Below the pieces are notes generated by a model, which was not told the DNA's origin, made no database searches, and worked only from the letters and a program-made list of their open reading frames with translations. From Bacillota bacterium (GTDB lineage Bacteria > Bacillota_B > Desulfitobacteriia > Desulfitobacteriales > Desulfitobacteriaceae), in contig JAJYAS010000289.1 of the NCBI GenBank assembly GCA_021779415.1, positions 1 through 5,326 of the forward strand: DNA of 5,326 bases, read 5' to 3'. A program made the translations under genes and the position numbers. This document shows, in pieces, positions 1 through 5,326 of this stretch. The first letter of the stretch is position 1, and each line of letters begins with the position of its first letter.

Positions 1-117
1 TTTCTGAAAAGCCTCTTCACCCCAAGGATACCAATCAACGGGGTTATAAGAATGTTGGAGAAGGTAGGGTGACTTTTCATTAGCTAATCTATTGGGTATT
101 CGGTTATTTGTAGTCAT
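1..117 (-). CDS. yyaL: YyaL/DUF255 (SSP411-type) thioredoxin-domain protein, N-terminal 39 codons only
   Basis: Reading leftward from an ATG at 117-115, the first 39 codons are open and run off the window edge. Residues 7-37 contain the block [14 protein letters not shown] followed by [13 protein letters not shown]. This is the characteristic N-terminus of the DUF255 family (B. subtilis YyaL, animal SSP411/spermatogenesis-associated protein 20), in which a thioredoxin-like fold precedes a six-hairpin glycosidase-like domain. Family members are usually close to 600-700 residues, so most of the gene lies to the left, including the thioredoxin CxxC region, which cannot be checked here. The start is supported by an AAAGGTGGTG Shine-Dalgarno sequence on the minus strand, a few bases upstream. 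The biochemical role of the family is poorly defined. The gene points away from everything else in the window and is probably unrelated to the sugar-acid module. Confidence 0.88.
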
Positions 118-403: not shown

Positions 404-451
404 AAATTAACTAGCTAGAGCGTTGGATATAATGCTATGGCTAGTTAATTT
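404..451. repeat. Inverted repeat, 12-bp perfect arms
   Basis: AAATTAACTAGC (404-415) is exactly complementary to GCTAGTTAATTT (440-451). A further interrupted inner stem is possible (AGC 419-421 with GCT 434-436), leaving a loop that includes GGATATAAT. No T-run follows on either strand, so it does not look like an intrinsic terminator. It may be a structural element of a transcript or a protein-binding dyad; the function is unknown. Confidence 0.65.
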
Positions 452-728: not shown

Positions 729-773
729 TTTATTACGCTATTTGTAATATAATATTACAAATAGCGTAATAAA
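729..773. repeat. 45-nt palindrome with 21-bp perfect arms
   Basis: The arm 729-749 (begins TTTATTACGCTA, ends TTGTAATA) is perfectly complementary to 753-773, with only TAA (750-752) between them. Every one of the 21 base pairs matches. The bases outside break the symmetry at once (A728 against A774). There is no T-run on either side, so it is not a standard terminator. The centre contains a TATAAT string. A large operator, a cruciform-forming element or the remnant of a mobile-element end are all possible. Confidence 0.85.
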
Positions 774-921: not shown

Positions 922-1296
922 ATGAAGAGATGGGTCGTTGGAACAATTTGTTCATTTTTTATAATCTTCGCTTCGTTAGCATCTATGATTCAATTTTCTA
1001 ACGGATGGACAGTAGGGGATTATATTTTCAAGTTTCTAAATCAACCACCGTGGTCGAACAGTTTATCAGGGACACATTATAGTGTAATAGCTTTTCTGCT
1101 ATTATTGCTTGCAGGAGCCATCTGTTTAAGATTTTCGTTAGAGTCAGCACCTTCTAAATTAGCCAAAAGGCTAAATATCATGACTCTAATTTTGGTTTTA
1201 TGTTGGTTGCCAATTACTTATGCAGGTGAACAACTAGTTATGAGATTTTCTACAGGGATTAACTCTATTGGATCACTAGCCTTGCATAAAGTTTAG
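922..1296 (+). CDS. Hypothetical membrane protein, 124 residues
   Basis: The ATG at 922 follows GAGGTGG (911-917) at a short but acceptable distance, and the frame stays open to a TAG at 1294-1296. The protein has three likely hydrophobic segments: about residues 4-24 (after MKRW, a membrane anchor or uncleaved signal), 52-70 (a Leu/Ile/Ala-rich stretch) and 85-101 (IMTLILVLCWLPITYAG). Between the first two is a polar, aromatic loop (WTVGDYIFKFLNQPPWSNS) that is probably exposed outside the cell. A basic stretch (KLAKR) before the third segment suggests a cytoplasmic loop. I do not recognise the family and see no catalytic motif. The gene is monocistronic and convergent with the downstream regulator, with a terminator-like structure between them, so its job need not relate to sugar-acid use. 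The start and the membrane character are the parts I trust. Confidence 0.72.
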   Translation: MKRWVVGTICSFFIIFASLASMIQFSNGWTVGDYIFKFLNQPPWSNSLSGTHYSVIAFLLLLLAGAICLRFSLESAPSKLAKRLNIMTLILVLCWLPITYAGEQLVMRFSTGINSIGSLALHKV

Positions 1297-1395
1297 TATG
1301 ACATACTCTTACTCTTTTTAAATTTTGCTGATTTTTCTGTTGTCCGCCAACTGCATGCCCATTCGTCATGCTTTAATTTCGGATTTTTACGTTTT

Positions 1396-1452
1396 ACCGG
1401 GGCTATACCCTAGGAACAACCGCTCTTCTTTGTAAGCCCGGTTTATTTTTTT
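1396..1452 (+). terminator. Probable intrinsic terminator of the membrane-protein gene
   Basis: ACCGGG plus CT (1396-1404, with one bulged G) pairs with AGCCCGGT (1435-1442), and TTATTTTTTT follows at once (1443-1452). The T-run lies only on the right, fitting termination of rightward transcription from the 922-1296 gene. The 30-nt loop is longer than usual and the bulge lowers stability. The T-run overlaps the stop codon of the convergent regulator. Confidence 0.5.
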
Positions 1453-3364
1453 AATAAGTCTTTTTGATTCCAATTCTATAATTTTTTAGTTTCCGATAGA
1501 GTGTACTTCTGTCCATTCCTAGTAATTTGGCTGCAAGCGTTATATTTGAATTACATTGTGCCAATGCGGAGGTAATCCTATTTTCTTCAGATAGTAAAGA
1601 AGTGTGGTCTGTAATGTTAGTTGGTTCTGATTTATCTTCTCGGTCTTGCCAATATTTCCTTATCACATCTTCGGTAATAACTTTTTCATTGGCGATCACG
1701 ACTAATCTTTCGATGAAAAACCTTAATTCTCTGACATTTCCTGGCCAGTCATATTCAGCAAGATAGTCATATCCCGTAGAGGTGAGTTCCAGTTGCTTGA
1801 GGTGTTTTCGTTTATAATATTCCAAGAAATGATGTGCGAGATATTTTACGTCGTTGGGCCTATTGCGTAATGGCGGCAAATTCATTGTCAATACCTTAAG
1901 CCTGTAAAAAAGATCTTGTCTAAAATGTCCTTCTTTAATAAGTTCCATCAAATTCTTATTGGTAGCAGCAATAATCCTCATATCAACAGGTATATATTTG
2001 TCATCTCCTAGCCGCATGATTTGTTTTTCCTGCAATACTCGAAGTAACCGACTTTGACCATATTTGTCCATTTCTGAGATTTCGTCAAGAAAAATTGTAC
2101 CTCGATGTGCCATTTCAAATAAACCAGGTTTACCTTTTTTTGTTGCTCCTGTAAATGCTCCTTCTACATAGCCAAATAGTTCGCTTTCAAGTAAGTTTTG
2201 CGGTAACGCGGCGCAATTGACGGCAACGAATGGCCCGTTCTTCCTTGGGCTTTCATTGTGGATACTTTGGGCAAATAATTCTTTTCCAGTTCCTGATTCA
2301 CCTGAGATTAATACAGTCGCGTTGATTAAGGACATTTCTTGAGCGATTCGTTTGGTTTCAATAATCTGGCTAGAGATTCCTAAAATATCAGCAAATTGAT
2401 ATTTTGCAACAAATCTTCTCGCGATAACTTCATTACGGATTCTGGCTTCCATTTCCTGAATGCGAGTAACATCCTGAAAAGTAATGATTGCACCTATGAT
2501 CAATTGGTCAACGACTATAGGTGCAATGTTAAGGCTGATCCAGGTAGCACCAAGTTGCGTTACTTGGCCGATGGATTGTTGTCCTTCTTGTAAACATTTT
2601 TCAACATCTATGAAGGTTAGCACCAAATTTATTTTTTGTCCGAGCATCTCTTTGGCCGAGCGATTTAACAAGCGTTCTGCAGTTGGATTAAACACTTTGA
2701 TGACTCTCTCCTGATTTATACTTATGATGCCTTCTAATGAAGAGTCCACTAACGCTTTAAATTCTTGAGCTCGCTCTTTTTCGATTTTTCGGCCCAAGGC
2801 AATTTTTTGAGCCTCTAAGAAGGCTGCTCGAATGGAAAAATCCCCGGAACGTATGAGATAAGTCTTTAATCCTTTTTCTGCTGCTAAAAGAATTGTTTTT
2901 ATTCCACCCACCACAATATTAGCATCTGTTACTGCGACTTCTGCTATTTTTAAGGGTATATCCTCAACTGTTTTAAGAGGATAAATGGTCAATTCAATAT
3001 CGAAAATGTTTGATAGCACTTCGATGTCATCTACCATGTTGCTATACGCAAGTATTGCAACTTTTGGGTGAGACAACCCTGTTATCTTTTTGGATTCATG
3101 GAAAACCTGTGCCAGGTCTTGTCCAGTAATGGCGATTTCAACAACAGGAATTCTAACCCCGGACTCAATAATTAATTTGGCTGTGCCGCCCCTACAGACG
3201 ATAACATCAACATCCTCGTTTTGCAGTTTGTTGGCAAGCCTAATTCCTTTATTCAGTCGTGCTAAATATAAATCAAATTGATAGTCTAAGCCAAGTTCGT
3301 GCATAATTTCCTTTCCTTGAAGAAATAATTGCTTATCGGGAGCAATAAAAGCTATTTTAGACAA
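1451..3364 (-). CDS. Sigma-54-dependent activator with PrpR_N, PAS, AAA+ and Fis-type HTH domains
   Basis: This 637-residue bacterial enhancer-binding protein should remodel the sigma-54 RNA polymerase closed complex using ATP. Residues 1-190 resemble the PrpR N-terminal sensor (VIVCRGGTA 54-62; [15 protein letters not shown] 151-165; [10 protein letters not shown] 173-182). Residues 200-300 look like a PAS domain ([18 protein letters not shown]). The AAA+ domain (about 320-550) has Walker A GESGTGKE (355-362), the sigma-54 contact loop GAFTGA intact (402-407), Walker B GTIFLDE (422-428), putative arginine fingers in FRQDLFYRL (481-489) and sensor II PGNVREL (541-547). A Fis-type HTH closes the protein (about 595-634, [17 protein letters not shown]). 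It is longer than E. coli PrpR (about 530 residues), in line with the added PAS domain. The start is TTG: AGGAGG lies 11 nt upstream, an in-frame TAA lies three codons upstream, and the next ATG (residue 21) would cut into the sensor. Divergence from the transporter operon suggests it controls that operon; the ligand is unknown. Confidence 0.93.
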
Positions 3365-3375
3365 TTGTGCTTAAT

Positions 3376-3381
3376 CCTCCT
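3376..3381 (-). promoter_or_regulatory. Ribosome binding site that fixes the TTG start of the regulator
   Basis: On the minus strand AGGAGG (3381-3376) is followed by an 11-nt spacer and TTG (3364-3362). The spacer is slightly long. No other start codon lies in frame between the upstream TAA and residue 21, so this site decides the start. Confidence 0.75.
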
Positions 3382-3388
3382 AATATAC

Positions 3389-3400
3389 GGATATATATCC
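3389..3400. repeat. 12-bp perfect palindrome before the regulator gene
   Basis: GGATATATATCC is self-complementary and lies 8 bp beyond the regulator's Shine-Dalgarno sequence, inside its predicted 5' leader. It might be a small operator or a weak hairpin. Alternating AT palindromes of this size can also arise by chance. Confidence 0.4.
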
Positions 3401-3465
3401 TTATTGATCAATGGCATATACTTCAGTTTCACTATGGTTATATAAAGAATCTTGGATTCGATTTA

Positions 3466-3471
3466 ATTATA
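3466..3471 (-). promoter_or_regulatory. Candidate -10 element for the regulator gene
   Basis: A perfect TATAAT occurs on the minus strand (3471-3466) about 100 bp upstream of the regulator's TTG start. The sequence 17 bp further upstream does not resemble TTGACA, so the promoter would be weak or need help. That -35 position lies directly beside the large dyad at 3500-3539, which would suit autoregulation. Confidence 0.3.
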
Positions 3472-3499
3472 CACGTTTAGAGGGCATTTACACCACATA

Positions 3500-3539
3500 T
3501 GTAGCACTTACCACAACGTTTGTCGTGGTAAGTGCTACA
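3500..3539. promoter_or_regulatory. Large dyad, probable upstream activator site (enhancer) for the sigma-54 activator
   Basis: TGTAGCACTTACCAC (3500-3514) and GTGGTAAGTGCTACA (3525-3539) are perfect 15-bp inverted arms around a 10-nt centre that is itself partly symmetric. The centre is near 3519.5, about 72 bp upstream of the -24 box at 3591 and about 98 bp upstream of the predicted start site. That fits the usual location of enhancer-binding-protein sites. Arms of this length could hold more than one dimer. No T-run follows, which argues against a terminator. Binding by the adjacent regulator is inferred from position and symmetry. Confidence 0.8.
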
Positions 3540-3589
3540 ATTATTCTGGAAACGGTTAGCTAAAGCTAGGAAATTCAACATTTTGACGA

Positions 3590-3606
3590 TTGGCACAGTT
3601 ATTGCA
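3590..3606 (+). promoter_or_regulatory. Sigma-54 (-24/-12) promoter of the transporter-dehydratase operon
   Basis: TTGGCAC (3590-3596), five bases, then TTGCA (3602-3606) matches the sigma-54 consensus TGGCAC-N5-TTGCW at every conserved position. The GG (3592-3593) and GC (3604-3605) doublets have the required 10-bp gap. Transcription should start near 3617, leaving a leader of about 230 nt before the transporter. The intact GAFTGA activator encoded divergently provides the partner such a promoter needs. Confidence 0.9.
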
Positions 3607-3636
3607 AAAGATAGACTATATGCGAAGCGTTATTGT

Positions 3637-3650
3637 GGTAAATGGTTACC
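3637..3650. repeat. Small inverted repeat GGTAA-N4-TTACC in the operon leader
   Basis: GGTAA (3637-3641) and TTACC (3646-3650) flank four bases. With the two bases before it the sequence reads GTGGTAA, the same heptamer as the inner part of the 3525-3539 enhancer arm. It sits about 20-30 bp downstream of the predicted start site. It could be a second, weaker binding site for the activator or a chance similarity. Confidence 0.35.
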
Positions 3651-3752
3651 GTAAGAGCAGCGCTAAAGGTTTAGATTTTAAAATGAAGGGGATGAGAAAA
3701 ATAGACAGAGATTACGATTCAGCAGAAAACGTCTAGCAAAGTGCTTCAAATC

Positions 3753-3809
3753 AAAGGAGGTAAATGCTAGGATGATGAATCGATGATGTGCCTGAAGGAG
3801 CTAATCTAA
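3753..3809 (+). other. Strong Shine-Dalgarno followed only by tiny overlapping ORFs in the leader
   Basis: AAAGGAGGT (3753-3761) is a nine-base match to the 16S anti-Shine-Dalgarno, stronger than that of the transporter itself, yet no normal gene follows. The ATG codons after it give MLG (3764-3775), MMNR (3772-3786) and MMCLKELI (3783-3809), the last two overlapping by their TGA/ATG. A leader peptide, a ribosome-binding control element or the remnant of a lost gene are possible. Nothing shows that any of these is translated. Confidence 0.4.
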
Positions 3810-3849
3810 GTTAATTATTGATTTAATAAAAATGAGGAGGGGCTTGTTA

Positions 3850-5157
3850 ATGAAATCGAACCCTGTGAATCTCAGGAAAACAAATATTCGCTATTTTATC
3901 TTGGCTATGCTGTTCGTTGTTACAACGTTGAACTTTGTAGATCGTTCGACAATTTCTATGGCTGCTCCAGCCATGAGGAAAGATCTTGGGATTAATACAG
4001 TGAATATGGGCTATATTTTTTCTGCTTTCGGCTGGTCATATACCGCCCTACAAATTCCCGGGGGATGGCTACTGGATAAGTTTGGTTCTAGAATAGTTTA
4101 TGGCGTAGGCCTTATACTATGGTCTTTGTTTACTTTCTTTCAAGGTGCGGTAGGTTTCTTCGGAGGGGCAGCAGGTTTCATAATCTTATTCGCTCTACGG
4201 CTTTTGATGGGAGTTAGTGAAGCACCTGCATTTCCGGCGAACAGCCGACTGACGACAATGTGGTTTCCAACGCATGAACGTGGTTTAGCATCGGCAATTT
4301 TTAATTCTGCGCAATATTTTGCTTTGGCAGTTTTTAATCCGATCATGGGATGGATTCTAATTAAATTTGGCTGGCCGCATGTATTCTATTCGATGGGTAT
4401 AGCGGGAATCATTCTGGGAGTTATATGGTTTGCCGTAATTCGTGATCCCAGAAATCATCCAAAAGTGAATCAAGCGGAACTGGATTACATTCAATCCGGG
4501 GGTGGTTTGGCGGATCTGGTGGACAGCAATAGCGTTATTAAATGGTCTTATGTTCGTAAACTTGTTACTAATCGGATGATGATTGGCATATATCTTGGAC
4601 AGTTTTGTTTGAATGTAAGCACATGGTTTTTCTTGACGTGGTTCCCCACGTACTTGATTACAACTAGGGGAATGTCAATTCTGAAGGTGGGCCTTCTTGC
4701 TGCGATTCCTGCCATTGGAGGCTTTGTTGGTGGTGTGCTTGGCGGTTATGTCTCGGATTGGTTACTGCGAAAAGGTAAAAGTCTGACTTTTGCTCGCAAG
4801 TTCCCAATTGTTTTAGGATTACTTTTGTCGGGCAGCATTATTCTTGCGAACTATGTTAGCACTACGTCGGTTATTATTGCTGTCATGTCGCTAGCGTTTT
4901 TTGCCAAAGGCTTTGGTGGTCTTGGTTGGACAGTTGTCAGTGATACATCTCCCAAAGAAATGTTGGGGTTAAGTGGAGGTATTTTCAATTTCGCAGGTAA
5001 CATTGCCAGTATCGTCACGCCAATCGTTATTGGATATATTCTCAGCGTAACCCACTCTTTCAACGGAGCGTTGATCTTTGTTGGGGCAATGGGGATTTTG
5101 GGAGCCTTATCTTTCTTAATTATTGTTCAAGACATTAAGCGAGTAGAATTTGATTAG
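3850..5157 (+). CDS. gudP: MFS transporter, ACS family, glucarate/galactarate (GudP/GarP) type
   Basis: This 435-residue major facilitator should import D-glucarate and/or galactarate with protons across the cytoplasmic membrane. About 12 hydrophobic segments are visible, with a cytoplasmic central loop near residues 197-235. Family marks are NFVDR (28-32), the motif-A-like GGWLLDKFGSR (71-81), RLLMGVSEAPAFPANSR (117-133) and WFPTHERG (138-145). From memory, it lines up along its whole length with E. coli GudP (450 residues), including MGYxFSAF, IFNSAQYFA, SRMMIG-like NRMMIG, RGMSILK, GGVLGG, PKE-GLSGG and SFNGALI near the C-terminus. I chose ATG 3850 over the in-frame ATG 3832 because AGGAGG (3835-3840) lies 9 nt before 3850, whereas the 3832 codon abuts this site and lacks its own. 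It is the first gene after the sigma-54 promoter, and the dehydratase gene follows 73 bp on. Glucarate and galactarate cannot be told apart by sequence alone. Confidence 0.9.
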   Translation: MKSNPVNLRKTNIRYFILAMLFVVTTLNFVDRSTISMAAPAMRKDLGINTVNMGYIFSAFGWSYTALQIPGGWLLDKFGSRIVYGVGLILWSLFTFFQGAVGFFGGAAGFIILFALRLLMGVSEAPAFPANSRLTTMWFPTHERGLASAIFNSAQYFALAVFNPIMGWILIKFGWPHVFYSMGIAGIILGVIWFAVIRDPRNHPKVNQAELDYIQSGGGLADLVDSNSVIKWSYVRKLVTNRMMIGIYLGQFCLNVSTWFFLTWFPTYLITTRGMSILKVGLLAAIPAIGGFVGGVLGGYVSDWLLRKGKSLTFARKFPIVLGLLLSGSIILANYVSTTSVIIAVMSLAFFAKGFGGLGWTVVSDTSPKEMLGLSGGIFNFAGNIASIVTPIVIGYILSVTHSFNGALIFVGAMGILGALSFLIIVQDIKRVEFD

Positions 5158-5179
5158 GAAAACAAAGGGAGTGTTCCAA

Positions 5180-5209
5180 ATGTGTAATTTTGGAGCAACG
5201 ATAAGATGA
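5180..5209 (+). other. Nine-codon ORF in the transporter-dehydratase gap
   Basis: ATG at 5180 reads MCNFGATIR to a TGA at 5207-5209. GGGAG (5167-5171) lies 8 nt upstream, a fair ribosome binding site. An imperfect hairpin, TCCAAA (5175-5180) with TTTGGA (5189-5194), covers its start. This may be coincidence or a translational coupling device between the two operon genes. Confidence 0.2.
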
Positions 5210-5230
5210 AATACCAGGAGGATTTACCTA

Positions 5231-5326
5231 ATGCCAAGGCTCATGAACCAAGAAGAAGCACCGCTTTATATCAAAATCAATCCAATAGACAATGTTGCAA
5301 TCGTTGTTAATTCGGGAGGCTTACCT
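5231..5326 (+). CDS. garD: Galactarate dehydratase (GarD-like, UxaA/GarD family), N-terminal 32 codons only
   Basis: The reading frame starts at ATG 5231, 9 nt after AGGAGG (5216-5221), and runs off the window after 32 codons. The N-terminus contains PLYIKINPIDNVAIVVNSGG followed by LP. This is the start of the SAF-like domain of the GarD/UxaA dehydratases and resembles GarD (E. coli FYIKVHDTDNVAIIVND) more than altronate dehydratase UxaA (YIKIHALDNVAVALAD). GarD converts galactarate to 5-dehydro-4-deoxy-glucarate. The complete enzyme is usually about 510-525 residues, so its catalytic part lies outside the window. The 73-bp gap after the transporter has no terminator, which supports one operon and a sugar-diacid substrate for both. 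A related UxaA-family hydrolase remains possible because only the first domain's start is visible. Confidence 0.8.
   Translation, partial: MPRLMNQEEAPLYIKINPIDNVAIVVNSGGLP

What the first reader, a model, noticed from the sequence alone, without database searches (positions are those of the whole stretch)
1451..5326. Sugar-diacid (glucarate/galactarate) operon apparently driven by a PrpR_N-type sigma-54 activator
Seen: a divergent enhancer-binding protein with intact GAFTGA, a near-consensus -24/-12 promoter, a large upstream dyad, then a GudP-like transporter and a GarD-like dehydratase. Known: E. coli controls these genes with CdaR, B. subtilis with a GntR-type regulator, and the PrpR_N domain is best known from propionate (2-methylcitrate) control. 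Inferred: here the PrpR_N sensor, helped by a PAS domain, responds to a sugar diacid or a catabolite and gives all-or-none sigma-54 control. I know of no characterised regulator of this combination, but could not search.
Basis: partly seen in the sequence, partly recalled or inferred. Interest (0 to 1): 0.72.

Follow-up and report, generated by a model that had tools for sequence, protein, structure and literature searches.

The report
Sigma-54 switch for galactarate catabolism operon
A bacterial regulator that carries a sensor domain best known from propionate metabolism sits back to back with galactarate (sugar diacid) breakdown genes, and the DNA between them carries the sites expected of a sigma-54 on/off switch, a pairing kept in a number of related bacteria.

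Summary
Window 1451-3364(-) encodes an intact 637-aa enhancer-binding protein (PrpR_N, PAS, AAA+ with GAFTGA, Fis-type HTH). Opposite lie a perfect -24/-12 promoter (3590-3606), a DgoT/GudP-type permease (likely start 3850, not 3832) and the first 32 codons of a galactarate dehydratase gene (garD). The large dyad is an enhancer array: three 16-bp dyads at 3491, 3512, 3533, exactly 21 bp apart; a motif from eight other loci ranks them first in the window. In 13 of 14 loci with PrpR_N at least 60% identical, garD lies on the opposite strand behind the divergent promoter. Relatives add a GudL-like aldolase (9 of 13) and garR (8 of 13), so the pathway is galactarate catabolism. All 13 related genomes examined hold a sigma-54 DNA-binding domain. 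The protein is not PrpR (below the NCBIfam cut-off). Sigma-54 control of this dehydratase superfamily in Bacillota is already in print as prediction, so this is a new variant of a known kind; the PrpR_N link, triple phased enhancer and galactarate target did not turn up in my ten searches. The ligand is unknown. Regulator plus promoter are 93% identical to a Desulfosporosinus MAG while the genes behind are 67%: structural genes may have been swapped beneath a conserved switch.

The parts
1451..3364 (-). sigma-54 enhancer-binding protein, 637 aa, TTG start
   Evidence: TTG at the same place in L001, L002, L003, L009, L018, L019, L020; ATG or GTG there in L004-L008
2798..3286 (-). PrpR_N sensor domain (residues 27-189)
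   Evidence: Pfam PF06506 5.8e-36; PDB 2q5c 6e-10, 2pju 4.2e-6
2468..2764 (-). PAS domain (residues 201-299)
   Evidence: Pfam PF00989 1.1e-7; PDB PAS hits 5fq1, 8bjp, 2w0n
1883..2383 (-). AAA+ sigma-54 interaction domain (residues 328-494); GAFTGA at 2144-2161
   Evidence: Pfam PF00158 7.1e-68; GAFTGA in 25 of 25 EBPs compared
1478..1588 (-). Fis-type helix-turn-helix (residues 593-629)
   Evidence: Pfam PF02954 1.7e-10
3491..3506 (.). enhancer dyad 1 (CACCACATATGTAGCA), centre about -118 from inferred start
   Evidence: rank 1 in window with motif from eight other loci
3512..3527 (.). enhancer dyad 2 (CACAACGTTTGTCGTG), centre about -97
   Evidence: rank 2; core ACAACGTTTGT identical in L001, L002, L020
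3533..3548 (.). enhancer dyad 3 (TGCTACAATTATTCTG), weaker, centre about -76
   Evidence: rank 3
3590..3606 (+). -24/-12 sigma-54 promoter TTGGCACAGTTATTGCA; inferred start near 3617
3850..5157 (+). MFS permease, DgoT/GudP (ACS, glucarate-transporter-like) type, 435 aa
   Evidence: start chosen by ribosome-binding site and alignment
5231..5326 (+). first 32 codons of galactarate dehydratase gene garD, cut by window end
   Evidence: blastp to GarD of 11 loci, best 2.3e-12, 52-92% identity; GarD of five of those loci over TIGR03248 cut-off by hmmscan

Best explanation
A sigma-54 switch for galactarate catabolism. The regulator dimer recognises 16-bp dyads (consensus TRCAACAATTGTTGYA). Three dyads on the same face of the helix (21 bp = two turns) can gather three dimers, that is one hexameric AAA+ ring, about 76-118 bp upstream of the start at a -24/-12 promoter where sigma-54 RNA polymerase waits in a closed complex. 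A ligand, most likely galactarate or its dehydration product 5-keto-4-deoxy-glucarate, binds the PrpR_N domain (PAS possibly adding a second input), frees ATPase activity, and the GAFTGA loop opens the promoter of permease-garD and, by analogy with relatives, aldolase and garR. Shown by sequence: domains, promoter, phased dyads, conserved pairing, sigma-54 in relatives. Inferred: DNA binding by this protein, hexamer on three dyads, ligand, direction of control.
For: Domains. Perfect promoter, present in all 14 garD-divergent loci counting the window, L003 with a -12 mismatch. Dyads: a motif from eight loci, without the window, L001, L002, L020 and L019, ranks 3491, 3512, 3533 as 1, 2, 3 in the window at exact 21-bp steps; the training sites had been picked with the 13-locus motif, so the test is not wholly independent. 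21 bp stands out in the spacing scan of 14-33 bp over 13 loci (triple score 22.3; next 3.4 at 24). Dyad 3 to TGG is 58-59 bp in window, L001, L002, L004, L005, L019. garD behind the divergent promoter in 13 of 14 loci with PrpR_N at least 60% identical. Window EBP in a 6-row clade, all garD-adjacent, support 100/100; L020 was not in that tree. Sigma54_DBD in 13 of 13 genomes, partial in G017. No Diacid_rec domain (CdaR type) within 100 kb of garD on the same contig in those 13.
Against: No expression, binding or ligand data. In a sample not chosen by the regulator the pairing is not universal: of 10 garD-bearing genomes among 28 in the order of G001, a PrpR_N match lies within 5 kb of garD in 5, not in 4, and 1 cannot be told. 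Three dyads at 20-21 bp steps are seen in 7 of 14 loci, two in 5, one in 2. The L011 regulator (61%) faces other genes. The -24/-12 element is not special to garD loci: 5 of 8 distant loci have one too. Residues special to the garD-linked sensors are few and undistinctive. Contigs are short, so absence of CdaR nearby is soft; Diacid_rec proteins exist elsewhere in 15 of 18 genomes.
Confidence: 0.83

Rival explanations
1. The regulator does control the operon through sigma-54, but senses a different acid (e.g. glucarate, tartronate semialdehyde/glycerate, or another diacid carried by the permease) or a redox/energy signal through PAS, with PrpR_N as a general carboxylate sensor.
For: PrpR_N matches number 1-15 per genome in 18 genomes, some of them pieces, so paralogues probably read various acids; a second such regulator in L009 (7178-9088+) precedes genes for a four-carbon acid-sugar kinase (PF07005/PF17042), PdxA, a DHDPS-type protein and a 2-hydroxyacid dehydrogenase. 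gudD joins the operon in L004.
Against: Of the eight partner genes looked for, garD is the only one present in every one of the 13 divergent loci.
Confidence: 0.35
2. The protein is a true PrpR (2-methylcitrate sensor) and its position beside garD is accidental or a cross-talk arrangement.
For: PrpR_N domain; second-best NCBIfam hit is TIGR02329 PrpR.
Against: 382.4 bits against cut-off 499.2; PAS domain besides PrpR_N; conserved pairing with garD. Genes of the 2-methylcitrate cycle were not searched for.
Confidence: 0.04
3. The phased array is a site for autoregulation of the regulator gene, and operon control runs through a distant regulator such as CdaR.
For: Dyads lie between the divergent genes; Diacid_rec (CdaR-type) proteins exist elsewhere in 15 of 18 genomes.
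Against: Distance from dyad 3 to the -24 box is fixed at 58-59 bp in six loci, while dyad 1 lies 60-133 nt from the regulator start in the same loci.
Confidence: 0.08

Closest known systems
XduR with kdgT-uxaA in Clostridiales (PMC6615313, predicted)
   Same: Sigma-54 activator predicted to drive a sugar-acid permease plus a dehydratase of the UxaA/GarD superfamily (the kinship of UxaA and GarD is in the Pfam model names)
   Different: Target is uxaA, listed as pectin degradation; UAS reported as TGT-N10-12-ACA; sensor domain of XduR not given in the sections I read; Pelosinus is not named in the text
PrpR (Salmonella/E. coli prp operon)
   Same: PrpR_N sensor, AAA+, Fis HTH
   Different: Below TIGR02329 cut-off, PAS present here, different neighbouring genes
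NorR-norVW triple enhancer (PMC2941729, passages)
   Same: Three enhancer sites upstream of one sigma-54 promoter, there reported essential and a scaffold for higher oligomers
   Different: NorR senses NO through GAF; here three sites are seen in 7 of 14 loci and are untested
CdaR (E. coli gud/gar regulator)
   Same: Regulates galactarate/glucarate genes
   Different: PucR-type regulator (PMC7652997 passage), not an enhancer-binding protein; none near garD here
gud/gar pathway with GudL aldolase (PMC11775122, passages)
   Same: garD, DapA-like 5-KDG aldolase, garR
   Different: That text has no mention of rpoN and 'sigma' only as a supplier's name; one cluster pair it describes carries CdaR

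Membership tests
sigma-54 enhancer-binding proteins | AAA+ domain with Walker A and GAFTGA, C-terminal Fis HTH | tested here: met
sigma-54 enhancer-binding proteins | rpoN in the host | tested here: inconclusive
   Sigma54_DBD in 13 of 13 related genomes, partial in G017; no genome is held for the window
PrpR (TIGR02329) | score over equivalog cut-off | tested here: not met
   382.4 bits, cut-off 499.2
PrpR (TIGR02329) | 2-methylcitrate as ligand (recalled) | not testable with these tools
   needs binding assay
PrpR (TIGR02329) | 2-methylcitrate cycle genes next to it (recalled) | not tested
   not searched for; neighbours identified are galactarate genes
CdaR regulators | Diacid_rec domain PF05651 | tested here: not met
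   not among Pfam hits at E <= 0.001
XduR group | UAS of TGT-N10-12-ACA | tested here: inconclusive
   TGT-N10-ACA occurs between dyads 1 and 2 in window, L001, L002, L020, where a 21-bp step would make it anyway; it is absent from L003, L006, L007, L008, L018, L019, L057 with N10
NorR-like triple enhancers | three regularly placed sites upstream of the promoter | tested here: met
   window and 6 further loci of 14; function untested
galactarate dehydratase TIGR03248 | full-length score over cut-off 730.85 | tested here: inconclusive
   window holds 32 residues only; GarD of L001, L007, L009, L018, L020 over the cut-off
ACS-type sugar-acid permease TIGR00893 | score over cut-off 395 | tested here: met
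   461.5 bits

The most novel reading that the evidence does not exclude
[quoted passage not shown] the regulator-enhancer-promoter unit is stable while the catabolic genes behind it are exchanged between lineages, as the 93%/67% break behind 3714 suggests.
Probability: 0.45. Interest if true: 0.55.

Novelty: new variant of a known kind. Interest (0 to 1): 0.42.

Why it matters
PrpR_N domains are numerous in these bacteria (1-15 matches per genome in the 18 examined), and the one ligand I can name is 2-methylcitrate (recalled). A conserved partner gene, an exact DNA motif and a consensus promoter make one of them directly testable, and would give a galactarate-responsive sigma-54 switch. The break between a conserved control region and divergent structural genes suggests a way in which operons change content under one switch.

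Tried and rejected
Considered and rejected: true PrpR (below cut-off); CdaR as local regulator (no Diacid_rec within 100 kb on the same contig in the 13 genomes with the pairing); the dyad as a terminator (neither of the two terminator-like hits in 1300-3900 lies in it; no Rfam match in the window); the dyad as a single operator (it resolves into three sites). Looking for sensor residues special to garD-linked regulators gave four positions in the first 300 residues, two of them in PrpR_N, none telling. The structure model (mean pLDDT 80.3, pTM 0.50) was good for PrpR_N and PAS but poor across parts of AAA+; the 50 rows shown of the Foldseek search were AAA+ activators and added nothing on the ligand. 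My first idea that the DapA-like aldolase of the relatives was unreported is wrong: it fits GudL (PMC11775122 passages); the forms at garD here carry M or L and K or R where, by my own alignment, that paper has M110 and K194, so the second residue often differs from that paper's clade. My first count missed L008 as a garD locus because my ORF caller dropped the gene; one search corrected it. The tree labels L008 as not garD-adjacent, so its count of label changes is off.

Papers: PMC6615313 sections 5 and 7 and passages; PMC3162934, PMC2941729, PMC11775122, PMC7652997, PMC11770544, PMC4371752, PMC12316311 passages only; PMC9130780 and PMC12069270 term look-up, nothing found; the rest search listings. 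Statements that something is not in print rest on the ten searches; I saw 40 of 266 papers and 20 of 28.
Full report
What is there. The minus strand 1451-3364 encodes a 637-aa protein with PrpR_N, PAS, sigma-54 AAA+ and Fis-type HTH domains, Walker A GESGTGK and GAFTGA intact. On the plus strand a permease of the D-galactonate/glucarate type follows. The frame from 5231 gives 32 residues matching GarD of 11 related loci at 52-92% identity. The permease most likely starts at ATG 3850: GAGGAGG lies 9 nt ahead and the alignment with relatives begins there, so 3832 is six codons too early.

Promoter. TTGGCACAGTTATTGCA (3590-3606) is a perfect -24/-12 element; one match with up to one mismatch allowed in the window against 0.04 expected. 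In the 260 nt upstream of each regulator the element is present in 14 of 14 garD-divergent loci (window, L001-L009, L018-L020, L057), with a -12 mismatch in L003. It is also found in 5 of the 8 distant loci without garD (L010, L012, L013, L015, L021; not in L014, L016, L017), so it marks this kind of regulator rather than garD.

Enhancer. A palindromic motif found in 13 of those loci (L008 not used) reads TRCAACAATTGTTGYA. I rebuilt it from eight loci, leaving out the window, L001, L002, L020 and the near-duplicate L019; it then ranked 3491, 3512 and 3533 first, second and third of the entire window, exactly 21 bp apart. The eight training sites had been chosen with the 13-locus motif, so a little circularity remains. 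Scores as high as the three sites occur 26, 37 and 94 times in 688,129 positions of L001-L038, which themselves include the true sites. A step of 21 bp stands out among 14-33 bp. Sites scoring at least 6 at 20-21 bp steps number three in window, L001, L002, L003, L004, L005, L019; two in L007, L008, L009, L018, L020; one in L006 and L057. Single-base shuffles (1300) reach at most 3.4 for the triple score; the seven three-site loci reach 37.2-54.0 and the other six motif loci 9.0-25.7, all with a motif trained on them. The array also contains TGT-N10-ACA between dyads 1 and 2 in window, L001, L002 and L020, the UAS class reported for XduR and fourteen other clostridial groups (PMC6615313 passage). 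I cannot settle from sequence which unit the protein reads, but gaps between dyads vary while the dyad-2 core is kept in window, L001, L002, L020, and L011, L055 and L057 carry a single strong dyad. In the eight distant loci no dyad scores above 6 except a weak one in L014.

Partner genes. The regulator search of genome contigs gave 38 loci, 21 of them (L001-L021) over nearly the whole length. Among 14 loci with PrpR_N at least 60% identical (L001-L009, L011, L018-L020, and L057, which was found through garD) garD lies on the opposite strand behind the divergent promoter in 13; for L020 the 94% is over 118 residues because its regulator is broken, and in L018 garD is the third gene, behind another kind of permease and one more gene. 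The exception L011 has in that place an 80%-identical 55-aa stretch of the aldolase gene, and no garD match at E <= 1e-50 in its genome. In eight more distant loci (L010, L012-L017, L021; 44-52%) garD is not in the fetched DNA, some of which is short. L055 (44%), found through garD, has garD 4.3 kb beyond its PrpR_N domain on the same strand. In the 13 loci the first gene is a permease or garD itself; a DapA-like aldolase is present in 9, an HpcH/HpaI-family protein in its place in L002, garR in 8 (GarR over NCBIfam cut-off tested in L001 and L020). GarL over cut-off occurs in 0 of 16 genomes (weaker matches in 6), KdgD in 1 of 16. The DapA-like enzyme fits GudL; the Enterocloster gudL complements an E. 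coli garL deletion (PMC11775122 passages). So the route is galactarate, 5-keto-4-deoxy-glucarate, pyruvate plus tartronate semialdehyde, glycerate (enzymes by family, pathway from established knowledge).

How general. In a sample not chosen by the regulator, 10 of 28 genomes in the order of G001 hold garD; a PrpR_N match lies within 5 kb in 5 (G001, G004, G005, G008, G111) and not in 4 (G099, G100, G114, G119). In G100 and G119 one lies about 11 kb off, in G119 some 3 kb ahead of the aldolase gene of the same cluster. G104 cannot be told because garD is cut by the contig end. In the class of G017 only 2 of 82 genomes hold garD, so its presence in a Desulfosporosinus-like host looks acquired (inference). 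The same search for the regulator across the class of G001 did not complete.

A mosaic. Window 1393-3714 is 92.7% identical to L020 (Desulfosporosinus MAG), but 3877-5326 only 67.4%. Other contig lengths shared by the two lists (10798, 66252, 16489) pair the closer permeases with regulators of 69-71%. Against a special event: L002's permease too is only 75% to that of L001, L003 and L020 but 85% to L018, so permeases turn over or change fast in general, and the 32 residues of GarD decide nothing. The break lies behind the promoter, between 3714 and 3877. The simplest reading is replacement of structural genes beneath a kept switch; faster change of the permease alone is not excluded. A 99%-identical regulator is labelled Peptococcaceae.

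Mechanism and what is shown. Sequence shows an activator with all parts needed for sigma-54, a matching promoter, phased dyads and conserved pairing; Sigma54_DBD is found in 13 of 13 related genomes, partial in G017. The comparison to NorR, where three enhancer sites are essential and scaffold the oligomer, is from passages of PMC2941729. Ligand, binding and direction of control are inferred.

Known before. Sigma-54 control of a kdgT-uxaA pair (XduR) was predicted in Clostridiales (PMC6615313, section 7); COG2721 altronate dehydratase and MFS permeases are named as sigma-54-regulated in Bacillota (PMC12316311 passage); that GarD falls in COG2721 is recalled. A predicted sigma-54 site before a galactarate dehydratase gene is listed for Ralstonia solanacearum (PMC4371752 passage). 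PrpR_N is listed among sensor domains of clostridial activators. Searches showed no paper on a PrpR_N regulator of galactarate genes (of, 40 of 266 papers were listed); the library lacks most subscription journals.

Noticed in passing
window 3714-3877: Fall from 93% to 67% identity to L020 behind the promoter; also about 56 nt not seen in L020/L002, with AAAGGAGG before a four-codon frame (ATG ATG AAT CGA TGA, 3772-3786), perhaps a leftover gene start.
   Followed up: partly
window 729-773: Perfect inverted repeat, 22-nt arms with 1 nt between, outside the larger reading frames; function unknown.
   Followed up: no
window 404-451: Inverted repeat, 21-nt arms, 86% complementary, outside the larger reading frames.
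   Followed up: no
window 1-117 (-): Start of a thioredoxin-like (DUF255, Thioredox_DsbH) protein gene running off the window, Pfam 2.7e-12.
   Followed up: partly
window 922-1296 (+): 124-aa probable membrane protein, no Pfam family above cut-off, no convincing match in the related loci L001-L021.
   Followed up: partly
L002 6707-8020, L003 3400-4716, L004 3382-4629, L007 6881-8155, L019 3447-4772, L055 1957-3237: A nickel-pincer cofactor isomerase (NPN_iso_grp_22 over cut-off in the first five; L055 by similarity) sits in or beside these galactarate operons; it may epimerise hexaric acids (guess). The text of PMC11770544 has no 'group 22', 'glucar' or 'galactar'.
   Followed up: partly
L020 10001-11921: The 94%-identical regulator of the Desulfosporosinus MAG reads as three pieces; sequencing error or gene decay not decided.
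   Followed up: no
L011 9579-9743: A 55-aa stretch of the aldolase gene, 80% identical, remains opposite the regulator where the galactarate genes are gone; one strong dyad is kept.
   Followed up: no
L009 7178-9088 (+): A second PrpR_N activator beside genes for a four-carbon acid-sugar kinase, PdxA, a DHDPS-type protein, a 2-hydroxyacid dehydrogenase and a permease: perhaps the same scheme for another sugar acid.
   Followed up: partly
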